From a virus, in IMG/VR virus record IMGVR_UViG_3300001750_000028, positions 2,339-22,873 of that record: a stretch of DNA of 20,535 nt. One strand, written 5' to 3'. Position 1 is the stretch's first letter; each line of letters starts with the position of its first letter. Under the pieces are notes generated by a model. That model was not told the origin of the DNA. It did not search any database and saw nothing but the letters and a program-made list of their open reading frames with translations. Positions 1,352-20,535 of the stretch are shown here, piece by piece. The position numbers and the translations under genes were made by a program.

Positions 1352-1672
1352 ATGAAAAAAGTTAATAAATCAGGCATAATCCCAACTGGTGGTCATATCC
1401 TAGTATTACCAGACAAGGTTAAGGAAAAAACTTCTGGTGGAATTTTTGTTCCAGTGACAGTTCGTGACAAAGAACAAGCAGCAGCGACTTCTGGAAGAGT
1501 TATATCTATTGGAACTTCTGCCTGGAAAGATCTTGACAATGGTGAGCCATGGGCTATGGTTAGTGAACGAGTAAGTTATGCTCGTTATGCTGGTGTTGTC
1601 ATGAAAGGCAATGATGATGTTGATTATGTTTTAATTAATGATAATGATGTTTTAGCAATATTATTGGATTAA
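1352..1672 (+). CDS. GroES-like co-chaperonin (Cpn10 fold)
   Basis: This 106-residue protein has the Cpn10 core: IIPTGGHILVLPDKVKEKTSGGIFVP at residues 9-34 (in two pieces, IIPTGGHILVLPDKV and KEKTSGGIFVP), then a loop, SGRVISIGTSAWKD, and a C-terminal strand with YVLINDNDVLAILL. That is the order expected for GroES: N-terminal strand, mobile loop with GGI, roof, and a closing C-terminal strand. Phage GroES analogues such as T4 gp31 partner with host GroEL to fold the major capsid protein, and this gene sits between portal and scaffold/capsid, as expected for that role. The GGIFVP segment would be the GroEL-contacting mobile loop. No GroEL gene is in the window, so the host chaperonin would be used. 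The start has AAGGAAGG just upstream. Confidence 0.88.
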   Translation: MKKVNKSGIIPTGGHILVLPDKVKEKTSGGIFVPVTVRDKEQAAATSGRVISIGTSAWKDLDNGEPWAMVSERVSYARYAGVVMKGNDDVDYVLINDNDVLAILLD

Positions 1673-7776: not shown

Positions 7777-8085
7777 ATGTCTTATAAACCTGGTGATTAT
7801 AAAGTCATTTGTGATAGATGTGGTTTTGCAAGATTGGCATCTGATTGTCGAATGACTTGGGATGGTTGGTTTGTCTGTGCAGATACTTGCTGGGAACCCA
7901 AACACGAACAATTTACTCCTCCTAAACCACTTGGAGAAAAACAATCTGTTCCAGTATTGAGGAAAGAAGAGCCGTTAAATTTTATTATCTCTGTTGATGA
8001 TGAAACTTTGGAATCAGATGTTACTCCAATAGATCCTGAAGAAGGTTATTTTATCACTACCCCAATTACTGGAGATGATTTATAA
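7777..8085 (+). CDS. Zinc-ribbon-type small phage protein
   Basis: A 102-residue protein beginning MSYKPGDYKVICDRCGF. Cys12 and Cys15 (CxxC) pair with Cys34 and Cys38 (CADTC) as a likely zinc site; Cys24 and His43 (WEPKH) are extra candidates. The block CDRCGF...RMTWDGWFVCADTCWEPKH is a familiar small phage protein found among connector and tail genes, usually annotated as structural or hypothetical. The C-terminal half is acidic and probably flexible. An AGGA site precedes the ATG, and the stop shares a base with the next ATG (TAATG at 8083-8087), coupling it to the head-tail adaptor. A structural or assembly role is inferred from position only. Confidence 0.7.
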   Translation: MSYKPGDYKVICDRCGFARLASDCRMTWDGWFVCADTCWEPKHEQFTPPKPLGEKQSVPVLRKEEPLNFIISVDDETLESDVTPIDPEEGYFITTPITGDDL

Positions 8086-8732
8086 TGATTTTATCAGAGT
8101 TAGTTGCTGCTGTAGAAAGAGTCATCCAAGATAGTTCTTTTACAGAGAGTGATATCATAGCTCGTTTAAATGAAGCACAATCTGAAGTCTCTGGTGGAGT
8201 TCAATCTACTTTAGGCTCTTGGTTAACTCCTCCTTTACCAGAATTGTTAACTATTGGGACAATTGAAACCTTGGTTGATGCTGCTCATGTCGCAATGCCT
8301 GACAATTTTCAACGTACTCTACAATTTGTTGCTTCATCTGAAGGAAATGAAATTGACATCGCTGAATCTTTCATCTCTTTTGTTGAAGTATATCCGTTAC
8401 TTGATAAATCTGGTGCAATAGTTGAATGTTGCGAGACTGGTAAGAATTTTTATTATCAAGGAATCCCTACTTCTTCTGCCGAGATTACGATTCATTATTA
8501 TAGATTTCCAGTCGCTATGACCGTTGATGCTGACCTTCCAGATGGGATTCCAAGTCATTTGCATCGTGGATTATTAGTTAATCATGTCTGTTGGAAAATT
8601 TTTGAATTAATTGAAGATGGTATTGATGAAGCTAAAACAAATACTGAAAAATATATGACTTTATTTTTTAATGCTGCTCGAATACTTGAACTTTTTATTC
8701 CTTATGAAGATAGAAATTTTAACTTATTTTAA
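8085..8732 (+). CDS. Head-tail connector / adaptor protein (P22 gp4-like type)
   Basis: A 215-residue, mainly helical protein. The N-terminus (ILSELVAAVERVIQDSSFTESDIIARLNEAQSEV) is the typical opening of head-to-tail connector proteins, which form a ring under the portal: an amphipathic helix, a loop with xFTExDI and a second helix LNEAQ. Residues ~60-150 have beta strands (VDAAHVAMPDNFQRTLQFV, EITIHYYRFPVAM), followed by HLHRGLLVNHVCWKIFELIEDG, a helix also seen in this family. It starts in an overlap with the upstream gene. Located just before the nozzle-like gene, as in P22 (gp4 then gp10). The family assignment is by pattern, and other connector families could fit. Confidence 0.65.
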   Translation: MILSELVAAVERVIQDSSFTESDIIARLNEAQSEVSGGVQSTLGSWLTPPLPELLTIGTIETLVDAAHVAMPDNFQRTLQFVASSEGNEIDIAESFISFVEVYPLLDKSGAIVECCETGKNFYYQGIPTSSAEITIHYYRFPVAMTVDADLPDGIPSHLHRGLLVNHVCWKIFELIEDGIDEAKTNTEKYMTLFFNAARILELFIPYEDRNFNLF

Positions 8733-8771
8733 TTTATTCCAAATTAGTTATAAAACACTAAAAAGATAATT

Positions 8772-9662
8772 ATGCTATTATTTAAAGGTACAAAAGGTTT
8801 AAATATTGAAACTGATCCTGCAAGAATCAACTTTAATCCTGAAACTGGAGTTCAAGACTTAGCTGCCAGTAAAAATATAGATATTGATGATACTGGTAGA
8901 ATTTCAAGAAGAAAAGGTTTTGAAAGAAAAATCATTGGAAATTATCATAGTGGTTTTTCTTGTAATAATTATGCTCTTTGTGTAATTGGTGATGCCTTAA
9001 CTGTTTTGGAAGCAAATTATAGTACTAATGCTATTAGGCAGGTAACAATCGGAAGAAGGATGAAATATGTTAAGATTGGAGAAGATGTTTATTATTGTAA
9101 TGGAGTAGAAACTGGTAGAGTCAATGATAGAGTGTCCTATCCTTGGATAGCTACCTCTTATAATACTGTTGAGACAAGAATTTTATCTGGTCCAGTAGTT
9201 GGAGATATGTTGGGATTTTATAAAGGTAGGATTTACATTATCACAGATAAGATTATTTATTTTAGTGAAGCAAATTCCAGAAATCATTTTGATCTTGCAA
9301 GAAATGTAATCATAGAAAGTTCTACTATTAGAATGTTTGCTCCGGTAATGGATGGTATCTATATCTCAAACGAAAAAGAAATTGTATTTTATAGAGGTAA
9401 TTCAGTTAATGAATTTGAAAGAGTAGTAGTAGCTGACTATCCTGCAGTGGAAGGATCTGACATTACTGTTATGATGTCTCAAATTGGAGAGGCTGAAGAA
9501 GGTGGAAAGGCTGTATTAATGGCCACTGGGAAAGGACTTGCAGCAGGTTTTAAAAGTGGAAATTTTGTAAATCTTTCTGAAGATAAAGTAACTTATCCAG
9601 GAGTTGCTTTTGGAGCAGGAATTTTTAAAAATAGAAAATATATTGTGACATTACAACCATAG
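8772..9662 (+). CDS. Tail nozzle-like beta-propeller protein (gp10-type)
   Basis: A 296-residue protein rich in beta strands. It opens LLFKGTKGLNIETDPARINF, then GVQDLAASKNIDIDDTGRISRRKGFE, a segment recurring in phage proteins encoded after the connector. Repeated strands with aromatic/Gly turns (YALCVIGDALTVLEAN, MKYVKIGEDVYYCNG, GFYKGRIYIITDKIIYFSEA, GIYISNEKEIVFYRG) fit a beta-propeller like P22 gp10, the hub of the tail nozzle. It is shorter than P22 gp10 (472 residues), so it may be a smaller relative. The ribosome site is weak. Its role in stabilising packaged DNA and docking fibres is inferred from family and order. Confidence 0.6.
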   Translation: MLLFKGTKGLNIETDPARINFNPETGVQDLAASKNIDIDDTGRISRRKGFERKIIGNYHSGFSCNNYALCVIGDALTVLEANYSTNAIRQVTIGRRMKYVKIGEDVYYCNGVETGRVNDRVSYPWIATSYNTVETRILSGPVVGDMLGFYKGRIYIITDKIIYFSEANSRNHFDLARNVIIESSTIRMFAPVMDGIYISNEKEIVFYRGNSVNEFERVVVADYPAVEGSDITVMMSQIGEAEEGGKAVLMATGKGLAAGFKSGNFVNLSEDKVTYPGVAFGAGIFKNRKYIVTLQP

Positions 9663-9670
9663 GAGGAAAG

Positions 9671-10141
9671 ATGGCATTAAGATTAAGTACTGGTTTAGTA
9701 ACAGAACTGATGGGTGATGGTACTGATGATAATTCTTTAAGAGAATTACTCAAAGATGGAGTATTGGATATTTATAGCGGCAGTCAACCTTCAAATGCTG
9801 ATGCTACTGAAACAGGTGTTAAGCTTGTCTCTATTACAGAAAGTTCTGGTGCTTTTGTAGGCGGTGCTCCTGGCAACGGTTTAGAGTTTGACGCTGCTGT
9901 TGATGGTGAACTTTCTAAGGCTGTTGCAGAGACTTGGTCAGGAAATGGTATTGCAATAGGTACTGCTGGATGGTTTAGGTTTTATAATAATGCTTATATT
10001 TTAGGAGAAAGCACAGTTGCCATAAGATTTGATGGGAATGTATCTACTGCTGGCAGTCAATTGATTCTCAGTAGCACTGCAATCCAAGTCTCTTTACCTA
10101 TAACAATAGATACTTTTACATTAACACAACCAAAGAGTTAA
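9671..10141 (+). CDS. Virion structural protein, unknown function
   Basis: A 156-residue protein with an excellent TAGGAGGAAAG site before the ATG. It begins ALRLSTGLVTELM, then GVLDIYSGSQPSNADATETGVKLVSIT, which recurs in small phage structural proteins (LSTGLxxxLL, GxLxIYSGxQPxxAD). The rest is Gly/Ser/Thr-rich beta (GNGLEFDAAVDGELSKAVAETWSGNG). I recall this type being encoded among tail or fibre genes, with no known activity. An all-beta fold is expected; no enzyme motif is visible. Confidence 0.65.
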   Translation: MALRLSTGLVTELMGDGTDDNSLRELLKDGVLDIYSGSQPSNADATETGVKLVSITESSGAFVGGAPGNGLEFDAAVDGELSKAVAETWSGNGIAIGTAGWFRFYNNAYILGESTVAIRFDGNVSTAGSQLILSSTAIQVSLPITIDTFTLTQPKS

Positions 10142-10144
10142 CTT

Positions 10145-10513
10145 ATGAAATATATATCTACTGATGCCTTAGATGCTGCACTTAATTATATTAAGACAAA
10201 TGCAACAATTATGATGATTTGTCATACTGCTCCATCAACGTATGCTCAGGCAGTTGCTTATTCTGTTGGTTCAAGCAATATTAGTACTATTAACTTTAGT
10301 GCTCCTAAAACTGGAGCTGTTTCAGGTAGGAGAATTACTTGTGAAGAGGTAGAAATAACTATTACTTCTTCGAATAATATAACATTTCTGGTACTTGGCA
10401 AGGTAAGTACTAATACTTTAATGTATGTTACAGAGACTAATTCCACAAGTGTTATTGTTAATTCAATTTATAAAAATAAACCTTGGGATATTGAGATTAA
10501 TAACCCTACATAA
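10145..10513 (+). CDS. Small virion protein, unknown function
   Basis: A 122-residue protein starting 3 bases after the previous stop, with no strong ribosome site of its own, so probably coupled. The opening YISTDALDAALNYIKTNATIM is a pattern I know from small phage structural genes that follow the preceding type (xxxxxALDAALNYIxxNA). The remainder forms alternating beta strands (NISTINFSAPKTGAVSGRRITCEEVEITITSSNN). Paired order with the upstream gene suggests they make neighbouring parts of the tail. No specific function is known to me. Confidence 0.65.
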   Translation: MKYISTDALDAALNYIKTNATIMMICHTAPSTYAQAVAYSVGSSNISTINFSAPKTGAVSGRRITCEEVEITITSSNNITFLVLGKVSTNTLMYVTETNSTSVIVNSIYKNKPWDIEINNPT

Positions 10514-18227: not shown

Positions 18228-20535
18228 ATGAATTTATCAGATTATAATAATGAAGACTTAGATAACCAAAAAAAGAAACAAAATTTATCTTCTTTATCAA
18301 CAGATGTTAATCCAAACCAACAATTTTTAGATGCTGGTCATCGTGCGGTTGAAGAAAAGATTAAAAATAGTCCATTATTTCGCCCAGAACGATATTTTGA
18401 AGATATGACTGATGATGATTATATCGCAATGGGGAGAGATAGTTTAAAAGAATCAAATCAACGAACATTTGGTGGAACATTAAAAGATATTGCCATCACA
18501 GGTGCTAAAGGAGTAGTTGGTGTCGGTGAATCAGTAGTTGGCTTGGCTGATATTCCTACTTTTGGCTATGTTGGTAAAGGAATGGAGAAATATCTTGGCT
18601 ATGATCCTGAAAAAACACAAGAGATGTTGTATGGACAATATTCACCAGCGCAAAAAGAAGCTTTTGAAAATGTAAGTCAAGCAAAAGGTTTTATTCCTAC
18701 GATAAAAGAAAGCATTAAAAATCCAAGCACTATTGGACATGCAATACTTGAATCAGCCCCACAAATGTTGGGAGGAGCAGCAGCAGCAAAAAAACTACTT
18801 TCCTCTGGATTGTTAAAAATGACTCCAACTTGGAGTAAGGTTATCTCTTCTGCAATGGGTGAAGGACTCGTAAGTGCAGGAGCATCAGCTGAAAGTGTTA
18901 GGCAACAAACTGATGATGGGCTTTTAACTCCAAAACAAGCAGCAATTTCTGTAGCTTCTGGTATTGGTACAGGATTATTTTCAGTTGCAGGAGGTAGAGT
19001 TGCTGAAAAATTTGGTTTTGCCGACCCAGATACTTTCTTGGCAGGCGGTAGCAATGTTACAAAGACTGGAATTATAAAAAGAATATTAGGTGGAGGTATT
19101 TCTGAAGGTGCTTTTGAAGAGCTTCCACAATCAATGCAGGAACAGGTATGGCTCAATGCTGCACTTGATAAGCCTCTATTAGATGGTGTCGGTGAAGCTG
19201 GGGCAACTGGTCTTTTATCTGGTATGACAATGGGTGCAGGATTTAATGTCTTTACTGGAGATTCAGCTACTAAAACTGGAGAGTCATCTATTGATGCTGA
19301 AAAAAATAAACAGATTGATGCACAAGCTGAAAATATTATTTCTAATGGCCCAGAAGTTATTAATAATTCACTTATTCAAATAGACAAAGATTTAACTGGT
19401 TTTAATACTTTGTTGAATAATCCAGAAGCATTAGAAGCAAAGGCTGTTGAACTTAATATGCCAATTGAAGAATTAACTGCTTCTCTAAATGATCAAATTA
19501 ATATATCGATGCAGTTGCAAGAACGATTAATGACTGAAACTAAGTTAACAGAGCCAGAAGTCGTTCCAGAGAACATACCTGAACAAGATATCATCCCACA
19601 AGACATATCACCATCAGATGAATTTATTCAAAGAGGTCAACCAAGTACAGCAGAAGAATCAGCTATGTCTTTTGGTTTACATCCTTCTCAATCGCCAGCA
19701 GCAGACTCGGCAAGGATTTTTGAAAGAGAAGGAGATATTATTAGTAATGCACAAAGAGAACGTCAACAAGTTATAAACAAAACATATCTCCCAGCAGAAC
19801 AAGAATTAGATGCTTTTGAAAGACAAGAAAGAGAAAAGAATAATATTAATCAAGATCAATTGAAAGAATTATCTATAAGGCTTGATAGATTTAGTCGTGA
19901 GGATAAGATAGAGTTACAAAAATTAAAAAAAGGAAAATTACAAATTCCTGTAGATATAAACATTGAATCTCCCACTAAGAACGATAAATATAAAATAGAA
20001 ATGGCAAAAGATTTTATAGATACTGCTACGGAAAAATTAGGTGGGAAGCTTGCTATTAATATTGTTGATCAATATGGCAGGCCAATTGAGTCAGCAGGAG
20101 TGAAAGAACTTTCTATAGGTGAAAAAAGAGACAGAGCTGCTGAATATATAGCGGCTGAAATTAAAGATCAAATTGAAAAAAAGAAAGTAATTGCCGATGA
20201 AGATACTGCTTTTAGAGACTGGCAAAGAAAAGCTGGTGATAAATATTGGAGTATAGGGCTTACAGAAGATGAGGTATTTGAACAATGGAAACAAGAAGCT
20301 AATCGATTAAGACCAAAAGACATAGTAATGTCTAATATGGCTATGTCACCAATTGAGCAAGAAGATCGTCGACAAGCAGAAATTGAAGTTGATCAAGAAA
20401 AACGGATTGCTGAACCAAGACGTATAGATACCACTCGACGTAAGCATATTGATGAAATGACGATTGATGAAATGCGAACTGAACTTAAAACAAGTCATTT
20501 AACAGGTCTTGGAAATAAAAGAGCTTATGAAGAAT
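18228..20535 (+). CDS. Giant polyvalent/ejection protein, N-terminal 769 residues, 3' partial with GGDEF-like start
   Basis: The frame runs from ATG 18228 to the window end without a stop. Residues ~84-340 are Gly/Ala-rich with amphipathic stretches: GAKGVVGVGESVVGLADIPTFG, EMLYGQYSPAQKEAFENV, NPSTIGHAILESAPQMLGGAAA, AESVRQQTDDGLLTPKQAA and LGGGISEGAFEELPQSMQEQ. This block is one I recognise as the N-terminal region of very large phage and conjugative 'polyvalent' proteins (DarB-like and relatives) carried in virions and injected with the DNA. Residues ~350-740 are Glu/Gln/Lys-rich and mostly disordered or helical. The last 12 residues visible, LTGLGNKRAYEE (758-769), match the opening motif of GGDEF domains (LTGLxNRRxFxE). 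The usual Asp two residues before the motif is Ser here. The active-site loop lies beyond the window, so diguanylate cyclase activity cannot be judged. Confidence 0.75.
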   Translation, partial: MNLSDYNNEDLDNQKKKQNLSSLSTDVNPNQQFLDAGHRAVEEKIKNSPLFRPERYFEDMTDDDYIAMGRDSLKESNQRTFGGTLKDIAITGAKGVVGVGESVVGLADIPTFGYVGKGMEKYLGYDPEKTQEMLYGQYSPAQKEAFENVSQAKGFIPTIKESIKNPSTIGHAILESAPQMLGGAAAAKKLLSSGLLKMTPTWSKVISSAMGEGLVSAGASAESVRQQTDDGLLTPKQAAISVASGIGTGLFSVAGGRVAEKFGFADPDTFLAGGSNVTKTGIIKRILGGGISEGAFEELPQSMQEQVWLNAALDKPLLDGVGEAGATGLLSGMTMGAGFNVFTGDSATKTGESSIDAEKNKQIDAQAENIISNGPEVINNSLIQIDKDLTGFNTLLNNPEALEAKAVELNMPIEELTASLNDQINISMQLQERLMTETKLTEPEVVPENIPEQDIIPQDISPSDEFIQRGQPSTAEESAMSFGLHPSQSPAADSARIFEREGDIISNAQRERQQVINKTYLPAEQELDAFERQEREKNNINQDQLKELSIRLDRFSREDKIELQKLKKGKLQIPVDINIESPTKNDKYKIEMAKDFIDTATEKLGGKLAINIVDQYGRPIESAGVKELSIGEKRDRAAEYIAAEIKDQIEKKKVIADEDTAFRDWQRKAGDKYWSIGLTEDEVFEQWKQEANRLRPKDIVMSNMAMSPIEQEDRRQAEIEVDQEKRIAEPRRIDTTRRKHIDEMTIDEMRTELKTSHLTGLGNKRAYEE

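What the first reader, a model, noticed from the sequence alone, without database searches (positions are those of the whole stretch)
20430..20535. GGDEF-like domain at the visible end of a giant ejection protein
After a polyvalent-type N-terminal region, the sequence ends with LTGLGNKRAYEE, the opening motif of GGDEF domains. If the active loop is intact, the phage would inject a cyclic-dinucleotide enzyme or receptor with its DNA, able to alter host signalling or counter nucleotide-based defences. The Asp before the motif is replaced by Ser, so a degenerate, binding-only domain is also likely.
Basis: partly seen in the sequence, partly recalled or inferred. Interest (0 to 1): 0.7.

Follow-up and report, generated by a model that had tools for sequence, protein, structure and literature searches.

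The report
Start of phage-injected GGDEF enzyme domain
The window ends inside a giant phage protein, probably injected into the host with the DNA, just where a GGDEF domain begins; in most related phages that domain is complete and looks like a working maker of the bacterial signal c-di-GMP, an idea already published in outline, but for this phage the catalytic part is not in the sequence.

Summary
The last 36 residues of the 3'-open ORF 18228-20534 match positions 1-36 of a GGDEF subfamily profile built without this sequence (32.2 bits; best of about 5000 shuffles 11.9). The contig ends there, so the window holds no catalytic residue. Relatives settle the domain type: sixty distinct complete domains, 47 of them inside giant phage ORFs, form one clade (support 0.895) apart from 18 ordinary GGDEF domains. 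AlphaFold2 gives pLDDT 93; the best structural matches are diguanylate cyclases, Z up to 17.4. The metal Asp, Lys, Asn and GDE are invariant (60/60); the guanine-contacting Asp is 54/60. The first Gly is usually Ser (SGDEF, 39/59) and the product-inhibition site is missing (58/59). So the family looks catalytically intact, not degenerate. For this phage the core stays unknown: the closest relative (L007) lacks exactly that part. Injection is inferred, not shown. GGDEF domains in injected polyvalent proteins were predicted by Iyer et al. 2017 (PMC5512222): a new member of a known kind, with a better-defined family.

The parts
18228..20534 (+). Giant late-gene ORF, first 769 aa, no stop before the contig end
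   Evidence: last gene of a structural module
18447..19340 (+). Helical N-terminal domain (residues 74-371) shared by giant phage proteins, with profile matches to N4 virion RNA polymerase and DarB-like proteins
   Evidence: PHROG 30335 E 3e-52, 2206 E 6e-9, 10089 E 1e-6; all-alpha model, pLDDT 74
20316..20534 (+). Block homologous to L007 (residues 697-769, 62% identity), reaching into the GGDEF start
   Evidence: blastp E 2e-23; DNA 79% over 20371-20535
20427..20534 (+). Start of the phage GGDEF domain, profile positions 1-36 (residues 734-769)
   Evidence: 32.2 bits versus shuffle maximum 11.9
20499..20534 (+). LTGLGNKRAYEE motif

Best explanation
The window ends about 36 residues into a phage-specific GGDEF domain carried by a giant multi-domain protein that is probably packaged and ejected into the host with the DNA. 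Where complete, the domain most likely works as a compact diguanylate cyclase without product inhibition: two copies come together on GTP, and the Asp and the Glu of (S/G)GDEF bind the metals that drive formation of c-di-GMP at the start of infection, changing host signalling or nucleotide-based defences. Shown here: family membership, fold, conservation of catalytic residues, giant-protein architecture. Inferred: packaging, ejection, catalysis, product, benefit to the phage, and that this phage's copy is complete.
For: The window fragment matches the family profile. The intact relative L010 passes Pfam GGDEF (E 2e-7, above cut-off). 60 complete domains, 47 in ORFs of at least 900 aa. Metal Asp 60/60, Lys 60/60, Asn 60/60, guanine Asp 54/60, GDE 60/60, C-terminal helix Lys 60/60, lined up residue by residue with DosC. 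AlphaFold2 pLDDT 93.3, pTM 0.86; VIA-align Z 17.4, rmsd 1.7 over 137 residues to diguanylate cyclase DgcR. Natural SGDEF (ECA3270) and AGDEF (VCA0965) enzymes are active (PMC3974145). Co-occurring polyvalent-protein domains: InPase, LPD38, helicase, RadC, weak methylase matches. L041 joins the window's N-terminal domain to a complete GGDEF in one ORF. Bordetella lysogens of a phage genus that carries the standalone form over-produce biofilm (PMC8471281; correlation only).
Against: No catalytic residue lies in the window. The closest relative, L007, lacks the core. In VCA0965 a change of the first motif residue to Ser abolished activity, so SGDEF is not always active; for KGDEF (8 members) I found no tested precedent. 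The Arg usual before the loop is mostly His (43/60). No assay of any member and no virion proteomics. The assignment of residues to metal and guanine rests on established knowledge of PleD-type enzymes.
Confidence: 0.5

Rival explanations
1. In this phage the GGDEF domain is a remnant: the catalytic core is deleted, leaving the first helices joined to the last helix, as in its closest relative L007, and the segment is only a linker or a relic.
For: L007, 79% identical in DNA over the last 165 bases, reads KRAYEESVKKPVQ directly into TAKEADEALRKSKAEREISGDRAARGEKPP: profile positions 2-44 followed at once by 139-169, in frame. The window's single base after the last codon (T) fits the TCT of L007.
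Against: The gap is seen in one contig only, within 143 bases of its end, where assembly is least reliable; none of the other members fetched shows it. The fragment in the window is well conserved.
Confidence: 0.3
2. The domain binds c-di-GMP or another cyclic dinucleotide without making it: a receptor or a sponge for host or defence signals.
For: First Gly replaced by Ser or Lys in most members; Ser abolishes activity in one tested enzyme, and degenerate GGDEF receptors are known (PMC3974145).
Against: Residues needed for catalysis are invariant in 60 of 60, more than binding should require; the classical RxxD binding site is absent in 58 of 59.
Confidence: 0.15
3. Chance resemblance: no GGDEF domain begins here.
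For: The fragment is short and Pfam alone finds nothing in it.
Against: Profile score of 32.2 bits against a shuffle maximum of 11.9; significant protein matches to independent GGDEF-bearing giant proteins such as L092 (2e-12), L010 (1e-11) and L025 (9e-11).
Confidence: 0.02

Closest known systems
GGDEF domains of phage polyvalent proteins (Iyer et al. 2017, PMC5512222; example Acetonema longum WP_004096050.1)
   Same: GGDEF embedded in a giant multi-domain phage protein with methylase, helicase, InPase or LPD domains; proposed injection and cyclic-nucleotide signalling
   Different: They called it not very widespread and, in the text read, gave no family definition; here 47 complete copies in giant ORFs with a common SGDEF-type loop and no RxxD site. 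The Acetonema sequence itself was not compared here.
YuA-type standalone phage GGDEF proteins (YuA gp44, MP1412, Bordetella CN1/CN2; phrog_5594)
   Same: Same subfamily, with the same C-terminal signature K-x-x-R-E-x-x-G-x-R-A-x-R-G-x-x-P
   Different: Single-domain proteins of about 157 aa encoded near an exonuclease and a putative anti-restriction gene, not in a giant protein; they form a separate clade (support 0.987)
Bacterial diguanylate cyclases DgcR, DosC, PleD, WspR
   Same: Fold and catalytic residues
   Different: Ser for the first Gly, His for the Arg before the loop, no RxxD inhibitory site; no sensor domain recognised
N4 virion RNA polymerase (giant ejected protein)
   Same: Related helical N-terminal region by profile (phrog_2206, E 6e-9); giant protein next to structural genes
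   Different: No polymerase domain was found in the 769 aa seen here; no structural match confirms the relation

Membership tests
GGDEF domain superfamily | Significant profile match to the start of the domain | tested here: met
   Window residues 734-769 match a profile built without them, 32.2 bits
GGDEF domain superfamily | GG(D/E)EF loop and metal-binding Asp in this protein | not testable with these tools
   The contig ends at 20535
GGDEF domain superfamily | Catalytic residues in the intact relatives | tested here: met
   Asp, Lys, Asn, GDE 60/60; guanine Asp 54/60
GGDEF domain superfamily | GGDEF fold in an intact relative (L010) | tested here: met
   pLDDT 93; Z 17.4, rmsd 1.7 over 137 residues to 6zxb
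GGDEF domain superfamily | Canonical first Gly of the motif in the relatives | tested here: not met
   S 40, K 8, G 8, A 3 of 59; SGDEF and AGDEF have active precedents, so this does not exclude membership
Diguanylate cyclase (enzyme) | Makes c-di-GMP from GTP | not testable with these tools
   Needs an assay
Diguanylate cyclase with product inhibition | RxxD site upstream of the loop | tested here: not met
   Absent in 58 of 59 relatives
Phage polyvalent protein (Iyer 2017) | Very large multi-domain protein with unrelated enzyme domains | tested here: inconclusive
   In the window only the N-terminal region and the GGDEF start are visible; relatives L041, L032 and L048 carry InPase, helicase, RadC or methylase matches
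Phage polyvalent protein (Iyer 2017) | Encoded with late packaging and structural genes | tested here: met
   Capsid, adaptor and GroES genes upstream on the same strand
Phage polyvalent protein (Iyer 2017) | Packaged and injected into the host | not testable with these tools
   Only profile matches to N4 virion RNA polymerase and DarB-like proteins

The most novel reading that the evidence does not exclude
A broad lineage of phages delivers, with its DNA, a feedback-insensitive cyclic-dinucleotide synthase, in about a quarter of cases joined to an inorganic pyrophosphatase that would remove the pyrophosphate by-product and pull synthesis forward. It would act before any phage gene is expressed, either flipping host c-di-GMP signalling or supplying decoy nucleotides against defence; members with Asn or Thr at the base-contacting position may make other products.
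Probability: 0.25. Interest if true: 0.75.

Novelty: new member of a known kind. Interest (0 to 1): 0.42.

Why it matters
If active, these domains would let a phage raise a global host second messenger the moment its DNA enters, before transcription. The proposal has stood since 2017; I found no experimental test of it in the papers searched. The set assembled here (60 complete domains, invariant catalytic residues, a confident fold model) makes it directly testable with small soluble constructs.

Tried and rejected
Own record: no sequence beyond the window end. Direct tblastn of the 41-residue tail against phage and plasmid collections: no match. A degenerate DNA pattern of the motif in viral contigs found only two other contigs and no continuation of this phage. 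L009 first looked like another contig that stops at the motif; it was a clipped locus, and L010 from the same contig shows the complete domain. Some phage-collection matches (L015-L018) and several genome loci (such as L118, L120-L123, L125) are ordinary GGDEF proteins and were kept only as outgroup. The giant proteins of L002-L006 share the N-terminal domain but show no GGDEF. InPase as a constant partner was rejected: 15 of 55 giant ORFs, none in the visible part of the window or in L007. The N-terminal domain model gave no significant PDB match, so its relation to N4 virion RNA polymerase rests on profiles alone. Alcaligenes phage QDWS535 (L127), which has a related capsid, shows no GGDEF match in the profile scan. 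Paper searches for a tested phage diguanylate cyclase found only the Bordetella biofilm correlation.

Full report
Observation. The window is bases 2339-22873 of a 22873-base viral record whose sequence stops at window position 20535. ORF 18228-20534 (+) has no stop and reads 769 aa to the end, finishing MTIDEMRTELKTSHLTGLGNKRAYEE. Pfam finds nothing in the fragment, which is not surprising for 36 residues of a 161-position model.

Is it a GGDEF start? Searches with the tail brought in L007, whose giant ORF matches the last 56 residues at 77%, and a DNA pattern brought in the contig of L009/L010. The latter passes Pfam GGDEF above the curated cut-off (E 1.9e-6 on the clipped fragment; E 2.2e-7 on the complete ORF). 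A scan of viral contigs with a first alignment (A1) and a motif scan added many more. After removal of duplicates there are 60 complete domains. A profile of these, built without the window and without L007, matches window residues 734-769 with 32.2 bits, its positions 1-36; about 5000 shuffles of the tail reach 11.9 at most.

Catalytic state of the family. Across 60 domains the first Asp of the D-x-D motif, the Lys, the Asn, the Gly before the guanine-contacting residue, the GDE of the loop and the Lys of the last helix never vary; the guanine-contacting Asp is 54/60, with Asn 5 and Thr 1. The alignment to solved diguanylate cyclases such as DosC places these residues on the known active-site positions; the roles of those positions are established knowledge of PleD-type enzymes. 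The loop is SGDEF in 39, KGDEF in 8, GGDEF in 7, AGDEF in 3, SGDEY and GGDEI in one each of 59; the RxxD inhibitory site is absent in 58 of 59. A natural SGDEF enzyme and an AGDEF enzyme are active, but Ser in place of Ala abolished activity in the latter (PMC3974145); MbaA (SGDEF) also appears to make c-di-GMP in vivo (PMC8079147). The AlphaFold2 model of the L010 domain has pLDDT 93.3, and the structures it matches best are GGDEF domains, Z 17.4 and rmsd 1.7 over 137 residues for DgcR. In BFVD the best hits are an unnamed viral protein (57% identity) and the GGDEF protein of Bordetella phage CN1.

Carrier protein. 47 of the complete domains lie in ORFs of at least 900 aa, up to 4469 aa. Pfam adds InPase, LPD38, strawberry-notch helicase, RadC and weak methylase matches in the members scanned. 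Window residues 74-371 belong to a conserved helical domain found in giant proteins of other phages, with profile matches to N4 virion RNA polymerase and to DarB-like proteins. L041 and L048 carry this N-terminal domain and a GGDEF domain in one ORF; in L041 the GGDEF is complete. Upstream genes in the window are structural: GroES, capsid, SU10-type adaptor, with capsid relatives in Alcaligenes, Caulobacter and Pelagibacter phages. N4 virion RNA polymerase is packaged and ejected (PMC12633501). Ejection of the present protein follows by analogy only.

This phage in particular. The closest relative, L007, is 79% identical in DNA over the last 165 bases. It reads from KPVQ straight into TAKEADEALRKSKAEREISGDRAARGEKPP, that is from profile position 44 to 139 in frame, so the whole catalytic core is missing. 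This occurs within 143 bases of a contig end and may be an assembly error or a true deletion. The window stops before that point. Intactness here therefore cannot be decided.

SHLTGL replaces DPLTGL, but the position is D, N, H or S in the family and is not the metal site. It is no evidence for degeneracy.

Evolution. A FastTree of 60 family members and 18 other GGDEF domains keeps the family together (support 0.895) and the YuA-type standalone proteins as one clade inside it (0.987). In cultured phages the standalone form is annotated as diguanylate cyclase in YuA, MP1412 and Bordetella phages. Lysogens of the Bordetella relative LK3 over-produce biofilm, which the authors link to this gene; in the passages read no knock-out is described (PMC8471281).

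Known versus new. Iyer et al. 2017 describe GGDEF domains in polyvalent proteins, call them not very widespread and propose interference through cyclic nucleotides (PMC5512222). What is added here is the definition of one phage subfamily with conserved catalytic residues, its frequent occurrence in giant proteins, its SGDEF-type loop and missing inhibitory site, and its neighbourhood with InPase in 15 of 55 giant ORFs, 11 before and 4 after the GGDEF. That InPase removes the pyrophosphate made by the cyclase is my inference.

Noticed in passing
L007:10090-10311: In-frame gap that removes the whole catalytic core of the GGDEF domain, joining profile position 44 to 139; near the contig end, so either a deletion or an assembly error.
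   Followed up: partly
L050:9095-9559 and L050:9989-10492: Two GGDEF domains in tandem in one 3447-aa giant protein; GGDEF enzymes act as dimers, so the pair might work within one chain.
   Followed up: no
L046, L051, L052, L054, L057, L058, L060, L061 (domain near 8000-10500 of each locus): Variant loop YH(D/L)KGDEF with Lys in place of the first Gly, most other catalytic residues kept.
   Followed up: no
L010, L041, L028, L110 and 11 other loci: Inorganic pyrophosphatase domain (PF18823) before or after the GGDEF domain in the same giant protein, in several cases within 20 to 90 residues.
   Followed up: partly
L011:9995-10528, L024:7740-8249, L082:267-752, L090:3916-4422: Thr or Asn in place of the guanine-contacting Asp; possible change of base preference.
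   Followed up: no
window 1352-1672: Phage-encoded GroES co-chaperonin before the capsid gene, in the same order as in Alcaligenes phage vB_Af_QDWS535.
   Followed up: partly
L007:7493-7900: The start of the L007 giant protein reads like a peptidoglycan-degrading domain (NNNPGNLRF...), as in ejection proteins; judged by eye, Pfam gives no match there.
   Followed up: no
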